DNA of 27,687 nt, taken from the IMG/VR virus record IMGVR_UViG_3300028400_000026, positions 1 through 27,687 of that record. One strand, given 5' to 3'. The number at the start of each line of letters is the position of its first letter. The stretch's first letter is position 1. The notes below the pieces were generated by a model. It did no database searches. It saw only the letters and a list, made by a program, of their open reading frames with translations, and was not told the DNA's origin. Positions 1 to 27,687 of this stretch are shown piece after piece. The DNA comes from a virus. The translations under genes were made by a program, and so were the position numbers.

Positions 1-17
1 AGACTTTCAACAAGCAT
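1..17 (-). CDS. Possible gene start running off the left edge
   Basis: An ATG on the minus strand at 17-15 is preceded by an AGGAG at short spacing (GAGAGGAGACCC then ATG), and five codons (MLVES) are readable before the window ends. Nothing can be said about function. It is listed only because the ribosome binding site is good and it lies downstream of the truncated helicase-like gene on the same strand. It may be a chance site. Confidence 0.3.
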
Positions 18-60
18 GGGTCTCCTCTCAGATACTCGGTTAGTTTCGCAACTCCTAAGT

Positions 61-78
61 GCCTGATGGGACTCAGGC
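61..78. other. Small hairpin between minus-strand genes
   Basis: GCCTGA (61-66) and TCAGGC (73-78) form a perfect 6-bp stem around a 6-nt loop. It lies just after the stop codon of the truncated helicase-like gene. The plus strand has only TTTT after it and the minus strand has no T-run, so it is at best a weak terminator. Confidence 0.35.
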
Positions 79-81
79 TTT

Positions 82-330
82 TCAACTATACAACCCTTTC
101 TCCTTGCACCGATTCGCGAGAGGAACCGATAGTGATTCAGCTAGACTTATACGGTGCGTTATTACCAATATAGAACGTTTTTGTTTCTTGAATTTTGCAA
201 CTAACTTTTCTAATTGGTAAGTTTTACCAGTACCCTTTGCTGACTTGATACAAGTATATTTCGTTGAACTGCAATCAATGGTGCTAATATATCGGCTGTG
301 TTCTGTTATATGGGTAATATTAGATCTCAT
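82..330 (-). CDS. Truncated P-loop helicase-like (origin-binding-type) protein
   Basis: The 82-residue product has a Walker A-like motif SAKGTGKT about residue 30 and a following strand with ILVITHRISLAESL. This pattern resembles the N-terminal ATPase motifs I and Ia of replication origin-binding or superfamily 2 helicases, where an 'SPMGTGKT...HRxSLA' arrangement is common. A whole protein of that kind would be several hundred residues with a DExx box and later motifs; here a TGA at 84-82 ends it and the next codons contain more stops. The ATG at 330-328 is chosen because the frame further upstream is shared with the preceding gene, whose stop lies at 322-320, giving an 11-nt overlap. It is probably a broken gene or an assembly break; a small stand-alone P-loop protein is less likely. 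Confidence 0.55.
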   Translation of the reverse strand: MRSNITHITEHSRYISTIDCSSTKYTCIKSAKGTGKTYQLEKLVAKFKKQKRSILVITHRISLAESLSVPLANRCKEKGLYS

Positions 331-583
331 CCACTTTACCCCCAAAGTCATTGCCCTTTTTGTTTTTCGCATCTATAGCTATTTTTACTATTGCCAGTTT
401 AATTTTTAGCATGGGCACCATAATACCTTGTATAGTGTCAAAGTCGTATGGTCCTTCACCGTAAAGCGCTGTTACCTCATTGAGCATTTCTTCGTAATTT
501 TTTTTGTGTGTTAAGAGCTCATCCATCGACAAGTTTATGAGTTCTTCCATTGGGTTGTTTGAATCGTTGTGTTTTTTTGGCAT
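320..583 (-). CDS. Small acidic protein of unknown function
   Basis: This encodes about 87 residues starting MPKKHNDSNNP. The ATG at 583-581 has AGGA seven bases upstream (TAGGATTTGTCT), so it is preferred over the TTG two codons earlier. The sequence is rich in Asp and Glu and has a likely amphipathic helical middle (MEELINLSMDELLTHKKNYEEML) but no recognisable motif. It overlaps the following helicase-like gene by 11 nt, so the two are probably cotranscribed. A T4-late-like octamer, TATAAATA, lies about 100 nt upstream at 696-689 on the same strand. The function is not recognised. Confidence 0.6.
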   Translation of the reverse strand: MPKKHNDSNNPMEELINLSMDELLTHKKNYEEMLNEVTALYGEGPYDFDTIQGIMVPMLKIKLAIVKIAIDAKNKKGNDFGGKVDEI

Positions 584-669
584 AGACAAATCCTAATTGT
601 TTGTTTTTAAATAAAACTGCATACATTAAGATGTTTTTATCATATTGAATTGATAAGTGTATCTCCATG

Positions 670-698
670 TTGTATTTGAATGCAATTTTATTTATAAT
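670..698 (+). promoter_or_regulatory. Sigma70-like promoter for candidate small RNA
   Basis: A perfect -10 hexamer TATAAT (693-698) lies 17 nt after TTGTAT (670-675), which matches TTGACA at three of six positions. The predicted start of transcription is near 705. No gene follows until 932, and a terminator stands at 801-829, so the transcript would be a short RNA. Confidence 0.5.
689..696 (-). promoter_or_regulatory. T4-late-like octamer TATAAATA
   Basis: TATAAATA is read on the minus strand at 696-689, upstream of the small acidic protein gene that starts at 583. That gene also has a Shine-Dalgarno, so this would give an ordinary 5' leader of about 100 nt. The stretch is very AT-rich, so a chance match is possible. 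Confidence 0.3.
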
Positions 699-704
699 TT
701 TCTA

Positions 705-829
705 ATAATAAATAAATATATTCAAGTTGGCCTTCTAGTTATCTCCTAGACGTGTTGTTTTGAATGCAATCCTTCCAACCATAGCCAACTTGAACTTAGA
801 GAGCTGGGATAAAACCCAGCTCTTTTTTT
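705..829 (+). ncRNA. Candidate structured small RNA with its own terminator
   Basis: This stretch has no plausible protein but contains a perfect 11-bp inverted repeat (721-731 pairs with 784-794). The repeat encloses a 5-bp hairpin (734-738 with 746-750, 7-nt loop) and a possible 4-bp stem (754-757 with 776-779). It is followed directly by a strong terminator hairpin. A sigma70-like promoter upstream predicts a start near 705, giving a transcript of about 125 nt. It does not fit a tRNA: there are no recognisable D- or T-arms and the closing stem is too long. A 12-nt segment inside it (759-770) exactly repeats a segment of the promoter spacer (675-686). Its role is unknown; a regulatory RNA is a guess. 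Confidence 0.5.
800..829 (+). terminator. Rho-independent terminator
   Basis: GAGCTGGG (801-808) and CCCAGCTC (815-822) form a perfect 8-bp stem with loop ATAAAA. One further A-T pair flanks it, and seven T follow (823-829). There is no plus-strand gene upstream in the window, so it most likely ends the candidate small RNA. Confidence 0.85.
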
Positions 830-867
830 CATCCCCAGTTCTCTCCTGCATTCTTTTGTCTCCTTGT

Positions 868-875
868 TATAAATA
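868..875 (+). promoter_or_regulatory. T4-late-like octamer TATAAATA upstream of HNH-AP2 gene
   Basis: A perfect TATAAATA lies 57-64 nt before the ATG at 932. In T4 late-promoter geometry the start would be near 881, leaving a leader of about 50 nt that holds the AGGAG ribosome binding site. Confidence 0.4.
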
Positions 876-885
876 CAAATACACG

Positions 886-918
886 CCAACTAATATGGTT
901 AGTGTTACACCAACTAAT
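886..918 (+). repeat. Direct repeat CCAACTAAT x2 in leader of HNH-AP2 gene
   Basis: CCAACTAAT occurs at 886-894 and 910-918, 24 bp apart, both within an ACAC(g)CCAACTAAT context. The second copy abuts the ribosome binding site. It could be an operator pair for a regulator or a nuclease recognition site; this is inference. Confidence 0.4.
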
Positions 919-931
919 TAAGGAGATAATT

Positions 932-1642
932 ATGTCGAAAATTAAATTATTGAAACGAATTGAGCTACCAATACTCGAACCGGCCAAAGACTTTGCCGAG
1001 CTGTACGAATATGCCATTTCCACTATGGATTACGGAATAGGCACAAACGGTGAACGTGGGCTTTTCTGGGTACGTACCAAAGGACAAGCTAAACGAGGCC
1101 ATCGCGTTGGGACAATGGATCCAAACGGATATAGGTGGCTAAGCTCAAAAAACAAATTCGAGCATCAGTTTGTATTTTTACTCCATCATGGCTATATACC
1201 CAAACGTCCCCTCACGATAGACCATATAGACCAATGCAAGACAAATAATGACATAGGCAATCTTCGTATAGCTTCCCAATCACAGCAGAATGCCAATCGA
1301 AAGAGCAATATTGGGACATCACGACACAGGGGTGTTGCTTACTGCTCGAAATATAAAAAATGGCTAGCACAATATATCACCTGTATCAACCATGAGCGTA
1401 AAACTTATTTCATTGGATATTTCCCAACAGAGGATATTGCGGGATATGCGTACAATGCGTTTGTTCGTGTCCATCCTGATTATGACCCAAAATTTCAACA
1501 CCTCAACGATATAAATGAGACAAAGCTTACAGCTGATCAACGTGAATATATTGACCAACTGATATGCAAGAAACATGCCCATTTCTTTGAAAATTCCAAA
1601 ATAAAGAAAATCGACAATAGAGATGTGCTGTGTGTCACATAA
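932..1642 (+). CDS. HNH homing-type endonuclease with AP2 DNA-binding domain
   Basis: This is a 236-residue protein. The ATG at 932 has AGGAG six bases upstream, so it is preferred over an in-frame ATG ten codons earlier. The middle has an HNH_3-type core (TIDHIDQCKTNNDIGNLR, then a run of SQSQQNANR). After it comes an AP2/ERF-like DNA-binding domain, SRHRGVAYCSKYKKWLAQYI, ending with an alpha-helix-like AGYAYNAFVRVH segment. This HNH plus AP2 pairing is typical of free-standing phage homing endonucleases, which cut a specific DNA site and spread by repair. It stands alone between a terminator and a hairpin-rich spacer. A second, more diverged HNH-AP2 protein is encoded at 15394-16389. Confidence 0.88.
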   Translation: MSKIKLLKRIELPILEPAKDFAELYEYAISTMDYGIGTNGERGLFWVRTKGQAKRGHRVGTMDPNGYRWLSSKNKFEHQFVFLLHHGYIPKRPLTIDHIDQCKTNNDIGNLRIASQSQQNANRKSNIGTSRHRGVAYCSKYKKWLAQYITCINHERKTYFIGYFPTEDIAGYAYNAFVRVHPDYDPKFQHLNDINETKLTADQREYIDQLICKKHAHFFENSKIKKIDNRDVLCVT

Positions 1643-2307: not shown

Positions 2308-2898
2308 ATGAATGACATGGCACAAAAAATCAGGAAAACATTTGGTGACAGCGATATCAACGTCAAAGTCAATAACATCGTCGCAGATGCTTTGGGGTAC
2401 GATAGTGACCCACGTTTTGGAATACACCAACGTGTGATCCGTTCCCTAGGTGAGCTCACGTATCAGGCGCAACGTCTTCTCGTGTATATCAGGAGGCAAT
2501 CTGACATAGACGTCGATGAGTACATGAAGATTTCGAACATGGCAACGAATATTCTATACGGAGTTGTCACGTTAGCGAAAATTGAGCTTAGTCATAGAAA
2601 TTATGGAGACGATGTGATTTCCAAGCTAAACCGTACTCTTGACAAGATAAAGGAGGAGATTGATGGCATTCGCATTATTGGGCCAGACACGGAGTTTATC
2701 GATCTATTGAATCCATTCGATATATTCGACCCTGACTCACGAACTGATATTGTGCTGACACAGGAGGATCAAGATTTACAATTGAATGAACTTCTTGAGC
2801 GTGTGCATGTCTCAATATCATGTAATGCTGACATAGCATGTAATGCTGACATAGCATGTAATGCTGACAAAGACGACCAATCTCGACAAGAAGAATGA
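2308..2898 (+). CDS. Protein of unknown function with a Cys-containing C-terminal repeat
   Basis: A 196-residue protein starts at the ATG at 2308, preceded by CGGAG. Residues 1-120 are predicted mainly helical, with long stretches such as SLGELTYQAQRLLVYIRRQ and SKLNRTLDKIKEEIDG. The region from about 125 to 165 is acidic, and the C-terminus carries three tandem copies of a six-residue unit, (A/S)CNADI. The 18-bp DNA units are identical, which indicates recent slippage or selection for the repeat. The stop overlaps the ATG of the next gene (ATGA), so the two are coupled. No family is recognised. Confidence 0.68.
   Translation: MNDMAQKIRKTFGDSDINVKVNNIVADALGYDSDPRFGIHQRVIRSLGELTYQAQRLLVYIRRQSDIDVDEYMKISNMATNILYGVVTLAKIELSHRNYGDDVISKLNRTLDKIKEEIDGIRIIGPDTEFIDLLNPFDIFDPDSRTDIVLTQEDQDLQLNELLERVHVSISCNADIACNADIACNADKDDQSRQEE
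2821..2870 (+). repeat. 18-bp in-frame tandem repeat, 2.8 copies
   Basis: The unit TGTAATGCTGACATAGCA occurs at 2821-2838 and 2839-2856 without change, and partly at 2857-2870. It encodes (C)NADIA repeats at the C-terminus of the gene at 2308-2898. Because the unit is 18 bp, copy-number changes would keep the frame. Confidence 0.85.
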
Positions 2899-3246: not shown

Positions 3247-3335
3247 ATCAGCCGTAGGCTGGGCTTCGCCATCAGCTGTTAGGCTGTGCTGCGCCATCAG
3301 CTGTTAGGCTGTGCTGCGCCATCAGTCGAAGACTG
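3247..3335. repeat. Tandem 24-25-bp hairpin repeats between convergent genes
   Basis: Three adjacent units (3247-3270, 3271-3295, 3296-3320) begin ATCAG and end GCC; units two and three are identical. A shorter fourth unit starts at 3321. Each carries a small hairpin: CAGCC-GTA-GGCTG, CAGCT-GTTA-GGCTG (twice), and CAGTC-GAA-GACTG. The stems differ between units but stay paired. They lie between the ends of a plus-strand and a minus-strand gene, so they could act as a two-way 3' boundary, though there are no T-runs. A 28-nt segment of unit one recurs with one mismatch inside the fibre gene at 4720-4747. Confidence 0.8.
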
Positions 3336-14905: not shown

Positions 14906-15397
14906 CCTTATCGAATTTTTTTAAAGTTGTAATTATTTGCTCACGAACATCTGCTGGATCGGTCGAAACTGGTGTATCGGGTTCGTCTTGCAATTGAATA
15001 TGAGCAAGATATAGCTGGATATGGGAAACAGGGAAGGATAACACCTCAGTCAATGGAAGGTGCAATCTCAGTGACAAGCCAACTAAAAGATTAAGAAAGT
15101 GATTTTGTTTTAATTTTTTTTAGTGTTATCTATTGAATCATCGGATAACCCGGATTCAAATAACAATGCATCACTTAGTGGCTTCAATGATCTAGCACTA
15201 AGTCGAGCTTTAACATCTTCTGGTGAAGAGAATAACTGTTGATCATTTGTATCTGTTACCATCAAATGTGCTAACTTGTAAATCATCATATCATCCTCAT
15301 CTGAAGATATAATGTCCGTTAGTTCACCAGCCGTTAGTTCACGAAACGAAATATCAACGTCAGTGAATTTACCGTCTTGTTTTATCCTGATTTTCAT
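14901..15397 (-). CDS. Tail assembly chaperone GT, made by -1 frameshift
   Basis: The frame from 15397 ends at TAA 15112-15110, but shifting back one base at A AAA AAT (within the eight-A run at 15121-15114) opens 70 more codons to TAA 14903-14901. The tail part (LKQNHFLNLLVGLSLRLHL, then LTEVLSFPVSHIQLYLAHIQ and an Asp/Pro-rich end) has no stop and ends just before the tape measure. This is the arrangement of lambda gpG-gpGT and its relatives. A minority of ribosomes make the long form, whose C-terminal T domain binds tail tube subunits while the G part coats the tape measure. The fusion would be about 165 residues. The shift site and open frame are seen directly; frequency is unknown. Confidence 0.82.
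15110..15397 (-). CDS. Tail assembly chaperone G (unshifted form)
   Basis: 95 residues (MKIRIKQDGKFTDVDISFRELTAGELTDI...). AAGGAT precedes the ATG at 15397, which overlaps the stop of the nuclease gene as ATGA. The position between tail tube and tape measure and the slippery run at the 3' end identify it as the G protein. The middle has two likely helices (ELTDIISSDEDDMMIYKLAHLM) and a C-terminal helical part. It keeps the tape measure soluble during tail assembly. An AATAAATA octamer 38-45 nt upstream, in the end of the nuclease gene, may supply transcription. Confidence 0.82.
   Translation of the reverse strand: MKIRIKQDGKFTDVDISFRELTAGELTDIISSDEDDMMIYKLAHLMVTDTNDQQLFSSPEDVKARLSARSLKPLSDALLFESGLSDDSIDNTKKN
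15113..15121 (-). promoter_or_regulatory. Slippery sequence for -1 ribosomal frameshift
   Basis: On the minus strand the codons ACT AAA AAA AAT TAA contain A AAA AAT, a fitting X XXY YYZ heptamer inside a run of eight A. The zero-frame stop follows at once. No strong downstream hairpin is obvious by eye, so long A-run slippage may be enough. Indel errors in the run would also change the frame in a sequencing read. Confidence 0.75.
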
Positions 15398-16389
15398 CGA
15401 TTATCCTTTAGCTTAAAAATTCTATGTTGATACTTATTTATTAAATCCAAATATAATTTTGTGTAATCACCATTTGAATAATATGTTTCTATTGGAAAAT
15501 TTAAAAGATGTTGCCTTTTTATGGGGTTTTTTAAAATATTATCGATCCCAATTCTAGCAATTGTGGTCACATCACGAAGTTGAGCAGCAGTTTGCTCATC
15601 TTTACTTTGCGCAATATACATCACGTATTTCTTATCACAATGCCCGGATGTGTATTTGTTATGATATGTATTATAAAACACACCAATATAACTAGAGGTG
15701 CAATTTTTTCTTTTATATTCCCCAGGCTTTAGTTTTTCTTTATAAATTCGATTCTTGTATTTCGCCTTTATTTTTTCAAATAAATCAGTATATTTTCCAC
15801 CACTCCAATAATCAGTTAACGGATAATTTATTTTAAAATACTCAGGTGTTTTGATTATTTCTTCAATTTTGTTACGACAAATTATCGTCACATCGTATAT
15901 TCTTGCTCCATATTCTTCATTTGAAACGTTGGCGATGTGTTCTGAATATTCATCATTCCAATGTTTCACTACGTATGTGTTATGAGTTTTGTCATAAAAA
16001 ACACCCAAAAAACAGGATGTTTTATTTACTTTCTTCCGTCTATTCCTATTATTTTCGCTATATGTAACAATTCTTAAATTTTCAATACGATTGTCTTGTC
16101 GATCTCTATTAATATGATCGCATAATTCTTTTGGATAATCAGGCAGTTTTTTGTTGAAGTATAATAATACTAATCGGTGCAATTGGATTCTTTTACGTTT
16201 AATAATTGCGTATATATAACCATCGGCTTTATTCAAAGAGCCAATATAATCACCTGACTTGTGCTGACGATATTGTTTCTTGAACTTGAATCCTTTTCCA
16301 CTTGGATCATACTCGAGATATTCATCTATAAATTCGAGCAATAGATGCTCATCTTCTTTTCTTGCTGCAACTGTTTTACCATTTGCCAT
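15394..16389 (-). CDS. HNH endonuclease with two AP2-like domains, inserted in the tail operon
   Basis: 331 residues. The HNH core sits at about 85-125 (LCDHINRDRQDNRIENLRIVTYSENNRNR). Two AP2-like DNA-binding units follow, around 125-165 (SCFLGVFYDKTHNTYVVKHW) and 230-275 (SSYIGVFYNTYHNKYTSGHC), each with a short helix-like segment. The sequence is unusually rich in Lys, Asn, Tyr and Ile, and more AT-rich than its neighbours. It splits the usual adjacency of tail tube and chaperone genes, as free-standing homing endonucleases often do. GGGGA before the ATG at 16389 is locked in a terminator hairpin. The stop overlaps the chaperone ATG. Confidence 0.85.
   Translation of the reverse strand: MANGKTVAARKEDEHLLLEFIDEYLEYDPSGKGFKFKKQYRQHKSGDYIGSLNKADGYIYAIIKRKRIQLHRLVLLYFNKKLPDYPKELCDHINRDRQDNRIENLRIVTYSENNRNRRKKVNKTSCFLGVFYDKTHNTYVVKHWNDEYSEHIANVSNEEYGARIYDVTIICRNKIEEIIKTPEYFKINYPLTDYWSGGKYTDLFEKIKAKYKNRIYKEKLKPGEYKRKNCTSSYIGVFYNTYHNKYTSGHCDKKYVMYIAQSKDEQTAAQLRDVTTIARIGIDNILKNPIKRQHLLNFPIETYYSNGDYTKLYLDLINKYQHRIFKLKDNR
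15435..15442 (-). promoter_or_regulatory. AATAAATA octamer upstream of the tail chaperone gene
   Basis: AATAAATA is read on the minus strand within the last codons of the nuclease gene. It lies 38-45 nt before the chaperone ATG, leaving room for the AAGGAT site. This would let the chaperone be transcribed despite the terminator after the tail tube gene. Seven of the eight T4 late bases match. Confidence 0.3.
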
Positions 16390-16430
16390 AAAAAAAAATC
16401 CCCAAAGAAATAAAAAACATCTTCGGGGAT
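16390..16430 (-). terminator. Strong terminator after the tail tube gene, overlapping the nuclease start
   Basis: On the minus strand ATCCCCGAAGA (16430-16420) pairs with TCTTTGGGGAT (16408-16398), an 11-bp stem with one G-T pair. Eight T follow, running right up to the nuclease ATG. The right arm holds the only Shine-Dalgarno-like sequence (GGGGA) of the nuclease gene. It would end most tail tube transcripts and also block nuclease translation. Confidence 0.85.
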
Positions 16431-16458
16431 CTGATTTGACAAAATCAACGCTACAAAA

Positions 16459-27574: not shown

Positions 27575-27687
27575 CTAGATGAACAGTCCGCCGAAGCCGA
27601 TCCCGAGGGACATCACCAGCAGCAGGTAGCGGACACTGCCGGCGATGCGACGGTAGACGCCGAGAACCGCGACCGGGTGCAGTGACC
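27575..27687 (-). CDS. GC-rich C-terminal fragment of a membrane protein, probably foreign
   Basis: The last ~107 bases are 67% G+C against 32% in the 100 before. On the minus strand they read SLHPVAVLGVYRRIAGSVRY, then LLLVMSLGIGFGGLFI and TAG at 27577-27575. The first part is amphipathic and basic; the second is a good membrane helix. Base use suggests a high-GC bacterium such as an actinobacterium. It may be a chimeric assembly end, or host DNA next to the phage DNA. Confidence 0.4.
   Translation of the reverse strand, partial: SLHPVAVLGVYRRIAGSVRYLLLVMSLGIGFGGLFI

What the first reader, a model, noticed from the sequence alone, without database searches (positions are those of the whole stretch)
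670..829. Orphan small RNA: promoter, folded body and terminator with no ORF
A TATAAT with a 17-nt spaced -35, an 11-bp perfect closing stem (721-731/784-794) around one or two smaller stems, and a textbook terminator (801-829) stand in a gap with no plus-strand gene upstream. The terminator has no other obvious purpose. It does not look like a tRNA. Its size (~125 nt) suits a phage regulatory or anti-host RNA.
Basis: partly seen in the sequence, partly recalled or inferred. Interest (0 to 1): 0.7.

Follow-up and report, generated by a model that had tools for sequence, protein, structure and literature searches.

The report
Terminated leader RNA guarding homing-endonuclease gene
A short, well-folded RNA with its own terminator does appear to be encoded in this phage, just ahead of a DNA-cutting "homing" endonuclease gene, and it most likely helps keep that gene switched off; this resembles known phage controls, with one possibly new layer.

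Summary
The described elements exist: TATAAT (693-698), a perfect 11-bp stem (721-731/784-794) and a strong terminator (798-829), folding far better than shuffles (z -5.7). The promoter is weak evidence (-35 matches 3 of 6). No Rfam match and no homologue was found, so conservation could not be tested. Its leader has an RBS-sequestering hairpin (856-869/915-929) with a second promoter-like box (TGT-TATAAATA, 865-875) inside it. Transcripts from upstream hide the RBS; transcripts from the inner promoter would free it. This is the published design of T4 I-TevI, lysozyme gene e and Aeh1 mobE. The candidate RNA's hairpin loop (736-747) is complementary over 12 bp to the same RBS (921-932), reached by about 1% of shuffles. 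Most likely the unit is an upstream-promoter transcript that ends before the endonuclease and releases a 125-nt anti-RBS RNA, comparable to phage P1 C4 RNA. Expression and repression are inferred, not shown. New variant of a known kind; moderate interest.

The parts
670..698 (+). Promoter P1: weak -35 TTGTAT (670-675), 17 nt, -10 TATAAT (693-698)
   Evidence: not significant alone
605..625 (-). Inverted partner of the P1 sequence (18 of 21 bases identical to 677-697 when read on the minus strand); possible shared operator or promoter element for the divergent gene at 583
   Evidence: next best match in the window has 6 mismatches
705..829 (+). Predicted ~125-nt RNA (start ~705 inferred from the -10 position)
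   Evidence: z -5.7
721..794 (+). Body closed by a perfect 11-bp stem 721-731/784-794
734..750 (+). Hairpin UCUAG-UUAUCUC-CUAGA; with flank, 736-747 UAGUUAUCUCCU is complementary to the HNH RBS
   Evidence: I5
798..829 (+). Intrinsic terminator, 11-bp stem, 6-nt loop, T run
856..929 (+). RBS-sequestering hairpin of the HNH leader: 856-866 with 919-929, 867-869 with 915-917; opening the SD costs 10.8 kcal/mol
   Evidence: (1/300 shuffled leaders reach this)
865..875 (+). Promoter P2-like box TGT-TATAAATA inside the hairpin; transcripts starting ~880-882 lack the 5' arm and the SD opens at 1.7-1.8 kcal/mol
920..934 (+). Shine-Dalgarno AAGGAGAUAA and start codon ATG (932-934)
932..1642 (+). HNH homing-endonuclease-like gene, 236 aa (phrog_99, E 3.5e-32; Pfam HNH_3)

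Best explanation
The element is the first part of a guarded leader of an HNH homing-endonuclease gene. Promoter P1 fires, RNA polymerase makes a 125-nt structured RNA and stops at the terminator, so little P1 transcription reaches the gene. Any read-through RNA hides the HNH RBS in a hairpin (856-869/915-929). Transcripts from the inner promoter (TATAAATA, 868-875) lack that 5' arm and can be translated. The released 125-nt RNA exposes a loop (UUAUCUC, with flank UAGUUAUCUCCU) complementary to the HNH RBS and most likely pairs with it to lower translation further. Shown by computation: fold, terminator, cis hairpin, complementarity. Inferred: that P1 and P2 are used, termination efficiency, and repression in trans.
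For: Fold z -5.7 and terminator -17.9 kcal/mol. The cis hairpin makes SD opening cost 10.8 kcal/mol in upstream-initiated RNA versus 1.7-1.8 in P2 RNA; 1/300 shuffled leaders reach this. Both HNH genes of this phage have the two most occluded RBS regions of 34 genes (15.8 and 11.3, next 6.1), and both lie directly behind a terminator-like hairpin. The loop-RBS duplex is -13.8 kcal/mol, net -7.5 after opening costs, the best of 36 phage RBS regions (next -4.7); 4/400 shuffled RNAs and 3/400 random 125-mers reach it against this RBS. AGGAGATAA-ATG occurs only twice in the MAG, one being this gene. The MAG encodes Hfq. The hairpin-plus-inner-promoter design is published for I-TevI, segB, mobE (PMC2988022) and T4 gene e with TATAAATA (PMC3014915).
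Against: The loop complementarity was found after the fact. If any phage RBS were allowed as target, 173/400 shuffles do as well. The predicted net energy is modest. No homologue exists to test conservation. P1 has a poor -35. TATAAATA is not enriched in the window (3 sites), so T4-type late transcription is not implied. No expression data.
Confidence: 0.42

Rival explanations
1. Only the cis leader matters: P1 transcription is ended by the terminator and read-through RNA is silenced by the local hairpin; the 125-nt RNA is an inactive by-product whose outer stem merely stabilises it or aids termination.
For: The cis hairpin and terminator explain gene shielding without any action in trans; the second HNH gene also sits behind a terminator-like hairpin. 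The interior of the body is not better folded than shuffles.
Against: Leaves the perfect 11-bp closing stem and the loop complementary to the RBS unexplained.
Confidence: 0.28
2. A stand-alone regulatory sRNA acting in trans on host or other phage mRNAs (for example through C/U-rich loops on SD sequences), unrelated to the HNH gene.
For: Own terminator with T run, stable fold, C/U-rich unpaired stretches; Hfq is present in the MAG; 7-bp matches to the RBS of the major head and major tail protein genes.
Against: No better target than HNH among 36 phage RBS regions; few MAG genes have the same SD; no homologue or Rfam family.
Confidence: 0.2
3. No RNA of note: chance AT-rich promoter look-alike plus a terminator that stops spurious transcription; inverted repeats serve DNA-level functions such as operator or replication sites.
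For: P1 is not significant by itself; the 18/21 inverted repeat 605-625/677-697 and repeated GAATGCA suggest protein-binding sites in the same gap.
Against: The fold is far beyond shuffles and the terminator is one of the two best in the window and strand-specific.
Confidence: 0.1

Closest known systems
RBS-sequestering leader hairpins of phage homing endonucleases and late genes (T4 I-TevI, I-TevII, I-TevIII, segB, gene e; Aeh1 mobE)
   Same: Endonuclease gene; long upstream transcripts hide the RBS in a hairpin; a promoter inside the hairpin (here TATAAATA) gives short transcripts lacking the 5' arm.
   Different: Here a second upstream unit with its own promoter, structured RNA and terminator precedes the hairpin; the phage is a siphovirus-like HK97-type phage, not T4-like; the timing of P2 is unknown.
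C4 antisense RNA of phages P1/P7 (Rfam RF01695)
   Same: Short structured RNA, encoded in the same operon as its target, whose loop complements the target's RBS region (PMC5320573, PMC8198154, PMC12197685; that c4 lies upstream on the same strand is also from my own knowledge).
   Different: No match to RF01695; C4 is cut from a longer transcript by RNase P and targets antirepressor mRNA via two loops; here there is an intrinsic terminator, one complementary loop, and an HNH gene.
Other phage sRNAs (OOP of lambda, sar of P22)
   Same: Short, phage-encoded RNA that lowers translation or stability of a phage mRNA.
   Different: OOP acts on cII and sar on ant mRNA; no sequence similarity was found here.

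Membership tests
Homing-endonuclease leader hairpin with internal promoter (T4 I-TevI/mobE type) | RBS paired in upstream-initiated transcripts | tested here: met
   SD opening cost 10.8 kcal/mol; 1/300 shuffled leaders reach it
Homing-endonuclease leader hairpin with internal promoter (T4 I-TevI/mobE type) | Promoter placed so that its transcripts lack the 5' arm | tested here: met
   Placement only: TGT-TATAAATA 865-875 inside the hairpin; predicted start ~880-882; SD then opens at 1.7-1.8 kcal/mol. Whether the promoter is used is not testable here
Homing-endonuclease leader hairpin with internal promoter (T4 I-TevI/mobE type) | Inner promoter is a late promoter (T4 gp55 type) | tested here: inconclusive
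   Exact TATAAATA, but only 3 in the window, not enriched; it also fits an extended -10 sigma-70 promoter
Homing-endonuclease leader hairpin with internal promoter (T4 I-TevI/mobE type) | Downstream gene is a homing endonuclease | tested here: met
   phrog_99 HNH endonuclease E 3.5e-32; Pfam HNH_3; homing activity not testable
C4 antisense RNA (RF01695) | Covariance-model match | tested here: not met
   (the last search rang nowhere, so it is weak on its own)
C4 antisense RNA (RF01695) | Encoded on the same strand upstream of its target, loop complementary to the target RBS | tested here: met
   12 bp, 736-747 with 921-932
C4 antisense RNA (RF01695) | Processing by RNase P from a longer transcript; a second specificity loop | not testable with these tools
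   no expression data; no second compatible complementary loop found
Hfq-dependent trans sRNA | Intrinsic terminator with long U run and C/U-rich unpaired seed | tested here: met
   T run 823-829; loop UUAUCUC; Hfq gene in the MAG
Hfq-dependent trans sRNA | Binds Hfq and acts on a separate mRNA | not testable with these tools
   needs pull-down or reporter experiments

The most novel reading that the evidence does not exclude
A homing-endonuclease gene controlled by three stacked RNA devices: a terminator, a cis RBS-hiding hairpin with an inner promoter, and a separate terminated anti-RBS RNA acting in trans, the last not described for homing endonucleases as far as I know.
Probability: 0.3. 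Interest if true: 0.65.

Novelty: new variant of a known kind. Interest (0 to 1): 0.42.

Why it matters
Homing endonucleases are selfish cutters, and T4-type phages silence them early by hiding their RBS. Finding the same hairpin-with-inner-promoter design in an unrelated siphovirus-like phage suggests convergent or transferred control outside the T4 group. A trans-acting anti-RBS RNA made by the upstream promoter could also silence incoming copies of the same endonuclease in co-infection, which is directly testable with reporters.

Tried and rejected
Rfam at gathering and at permissive thresholds: only chance hits (SNORA20, NsiR8, RatA etc. far below cut-offs). tRNA/tmRNA: none. Coding: only a 6-codon ATG frame without an SD inside the RNA (sequence). 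Homologues of the RNA: none by blastn in phages or plasmids, by DNA in 63 genomes of the order, by stem or loop pattern in genome contigs and viral contigs (the loose pattern was far too permissive and was not pursued), or by a single-sequence covariance model over 63 genomes and 81 fetched phage loci. Neighbouring proteins (HNH, 2308-2898 protein, 583 protein, terminase) have no close relatives in viral contigs or, for HNH, genome contigs (terminase at most 35% identical; single-protein scans need exact short peptides and can miss relatives), so covariation could not be tested. Terminator as attenuator with an alternative antiterminator: no second copy of the stem arm upstream was seen by eye in the sequence. 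A second C4-like contact (5' arm AGUUGGC with the leader's GCCAACU, 885-891) exists but has the wrong order for a simple duplex and the arm is locked in the stem. T4-type late promoter class for the phage: TATAAATA is not enriched. Cofolding RNA with P2 mRNA also picks the SD duplex but with only a modest gain.

Full report
OBSERVATION. The -10 box TATAAT is perfect but the -35 (TTGTAT) matches 3 of 6; TATAAT is frequent in this window (23 on the + strand), so the promoter is plausible, not proven. The body is closed by a perfect 11-bp stem. The terminator (798-829) is one of the two strongest terminator-like sites found in the window and is directional. The fold of 705-829 is far better than dinucleotide shuffles (z -5.7), mainly through the outer stem and the terminator; the body alone has z -3.6 and the interior alone z -0.8.

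SETTING. The window lies on contig C270, from its first base, of a fragmented 2.6-Mb MAG (573 contigs) and carries a siphovirus-like phage: HK97-type terminase, portal, major head protein, tail genes, J-like tail protein and two HNH genes. The nearest terminases found are 35% identical or less, so this is an isolated phage. The gap 590-931 lies between a leftward gene (start 583) and a rightward HNH endonuclease gene (ATG 932; phrog_99 E 3.5e-32, Pfam HNH_3).

Folding 705-960 shows a second structure after the terminator: 856-866 (UUGUCUCCUUG) pairs with 919-929, covering the Shine-Dalgarno AAGGAG of the HNH gene. A promoter-like box TGT-TATAAATA (865-875) lies inside this hairpin. In any RNA begun upstream, opening the SD costs about 10.8 kcal/mol (11.1 in the full P1 transcript); in RNA begun at about 882-884 it costs 1.7-1.8. 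Only 1 of 300 leaders with a shuffled 830-917 segment hides the SD as well. Among 34 gene starts of the phage, the two HNH genes have by far the most occluded RBS regions (15.8 and 11.3, next 6.1); the second HNH gene also stands directly behind a terminator-like hairpin. This is the published design of T4 I-TevI, I-TevII, I-TevIII, segB, Aeh1 mobE (PMC2988022) and of T4 gene e, whose late promoter is TATAAATA (PMC3014915).

THE RNA AND THE RBS. The hairpin loop of the candidate RNA reads UAGUUAUCUCCU with its flank (736-747) and is complementary over 12 bp (11 Watson-Crick, one G-U) to AGGAGAUAAUUA (921-932), that is, from the SD to the first base of the start codon. TTATCTCCT and AGGAGATAA each occur once on the + strand of the window. 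After opening costs the interaction is -7.5 kcal/mol, the best of 36 phage RBS regions (next -4.7). Against this RBS 4/400 shuffled RNAs and 3/400 random 125-mers do as well; against any phage RBS 173/400 do. Because HNH is the immediate neighbour, the first figure is the relevant one, but the match was noticed after the fact and is suggestive only. In the MAG, AGGAGATAA followed by ATG occurs at one other place. The MAG has Hfq.

MECHANISM. Most likely P1 transcription is stopped before the HNH gene, read-through is silenced by the hairpin, and the released RNA pairs with the HNH RBS on P2 transcripts. Steps 1 and 2 rest on strong sequence evidence but no expression data; step 3 is a testable inference. 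Architecture on the same strand with a loop against the RBS of the next gene is C4-like (PMC5320573, PMC12197685), but the C4 covariance model does not match, so it works like C4 at most and is not a member.

CONSERVATION.

VERDICT. A real, non-random RNA-coding unit in all likelihood, but not an orphan: it is the first layer of a guarded leader of a homing-endonuclease gene. The cis part is a new member of a known design in an unrelated phage; the anti-RBS RNA would be a new variant.

Noticed in passing
window 605-625 and 677-697: Inverted repeat, 18 of 21 bases, TGNATGCARTTTTATTTAWAA, on both sides of the divergent start region; GAATGCA recurs at 678+, 762+ and 853-. Possibly operators of a phage regulator.
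   Followed up: partly
window 15394-16440 (minus strand): A second HNH gene starts directly behind a terminator-like hairpin ending in a run of T, with no clear SD, the most occluded start of the phage.
   Followed up: partly
window 1-372 (minus strand): A helicase-like ORF (ResIII, Walker A region) breaks off after 96 codons near the contig end; could be an interrupting intron, a frameshift or a contig end. Rfam is silent.
   Followed up: partly
window 27590-27687: Abrupt rise to about 70% G+C in the last ~100 bases of a 38% G+C window: possibly a chimeric contig end.
   Followed up: no
window 3247-3325: Tandem array of a 25-bp G+C-rich unit (ATCAGCTGTTAGGCTGTGCTGCGCC) in the gap between converging genes, very structured on both strands.
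   Followed up: no
window 2815-2869: In-frame 18-bp repeat (3 copies, 97%) near the 3' end of the gene 2308-2898.
   Followed up: no
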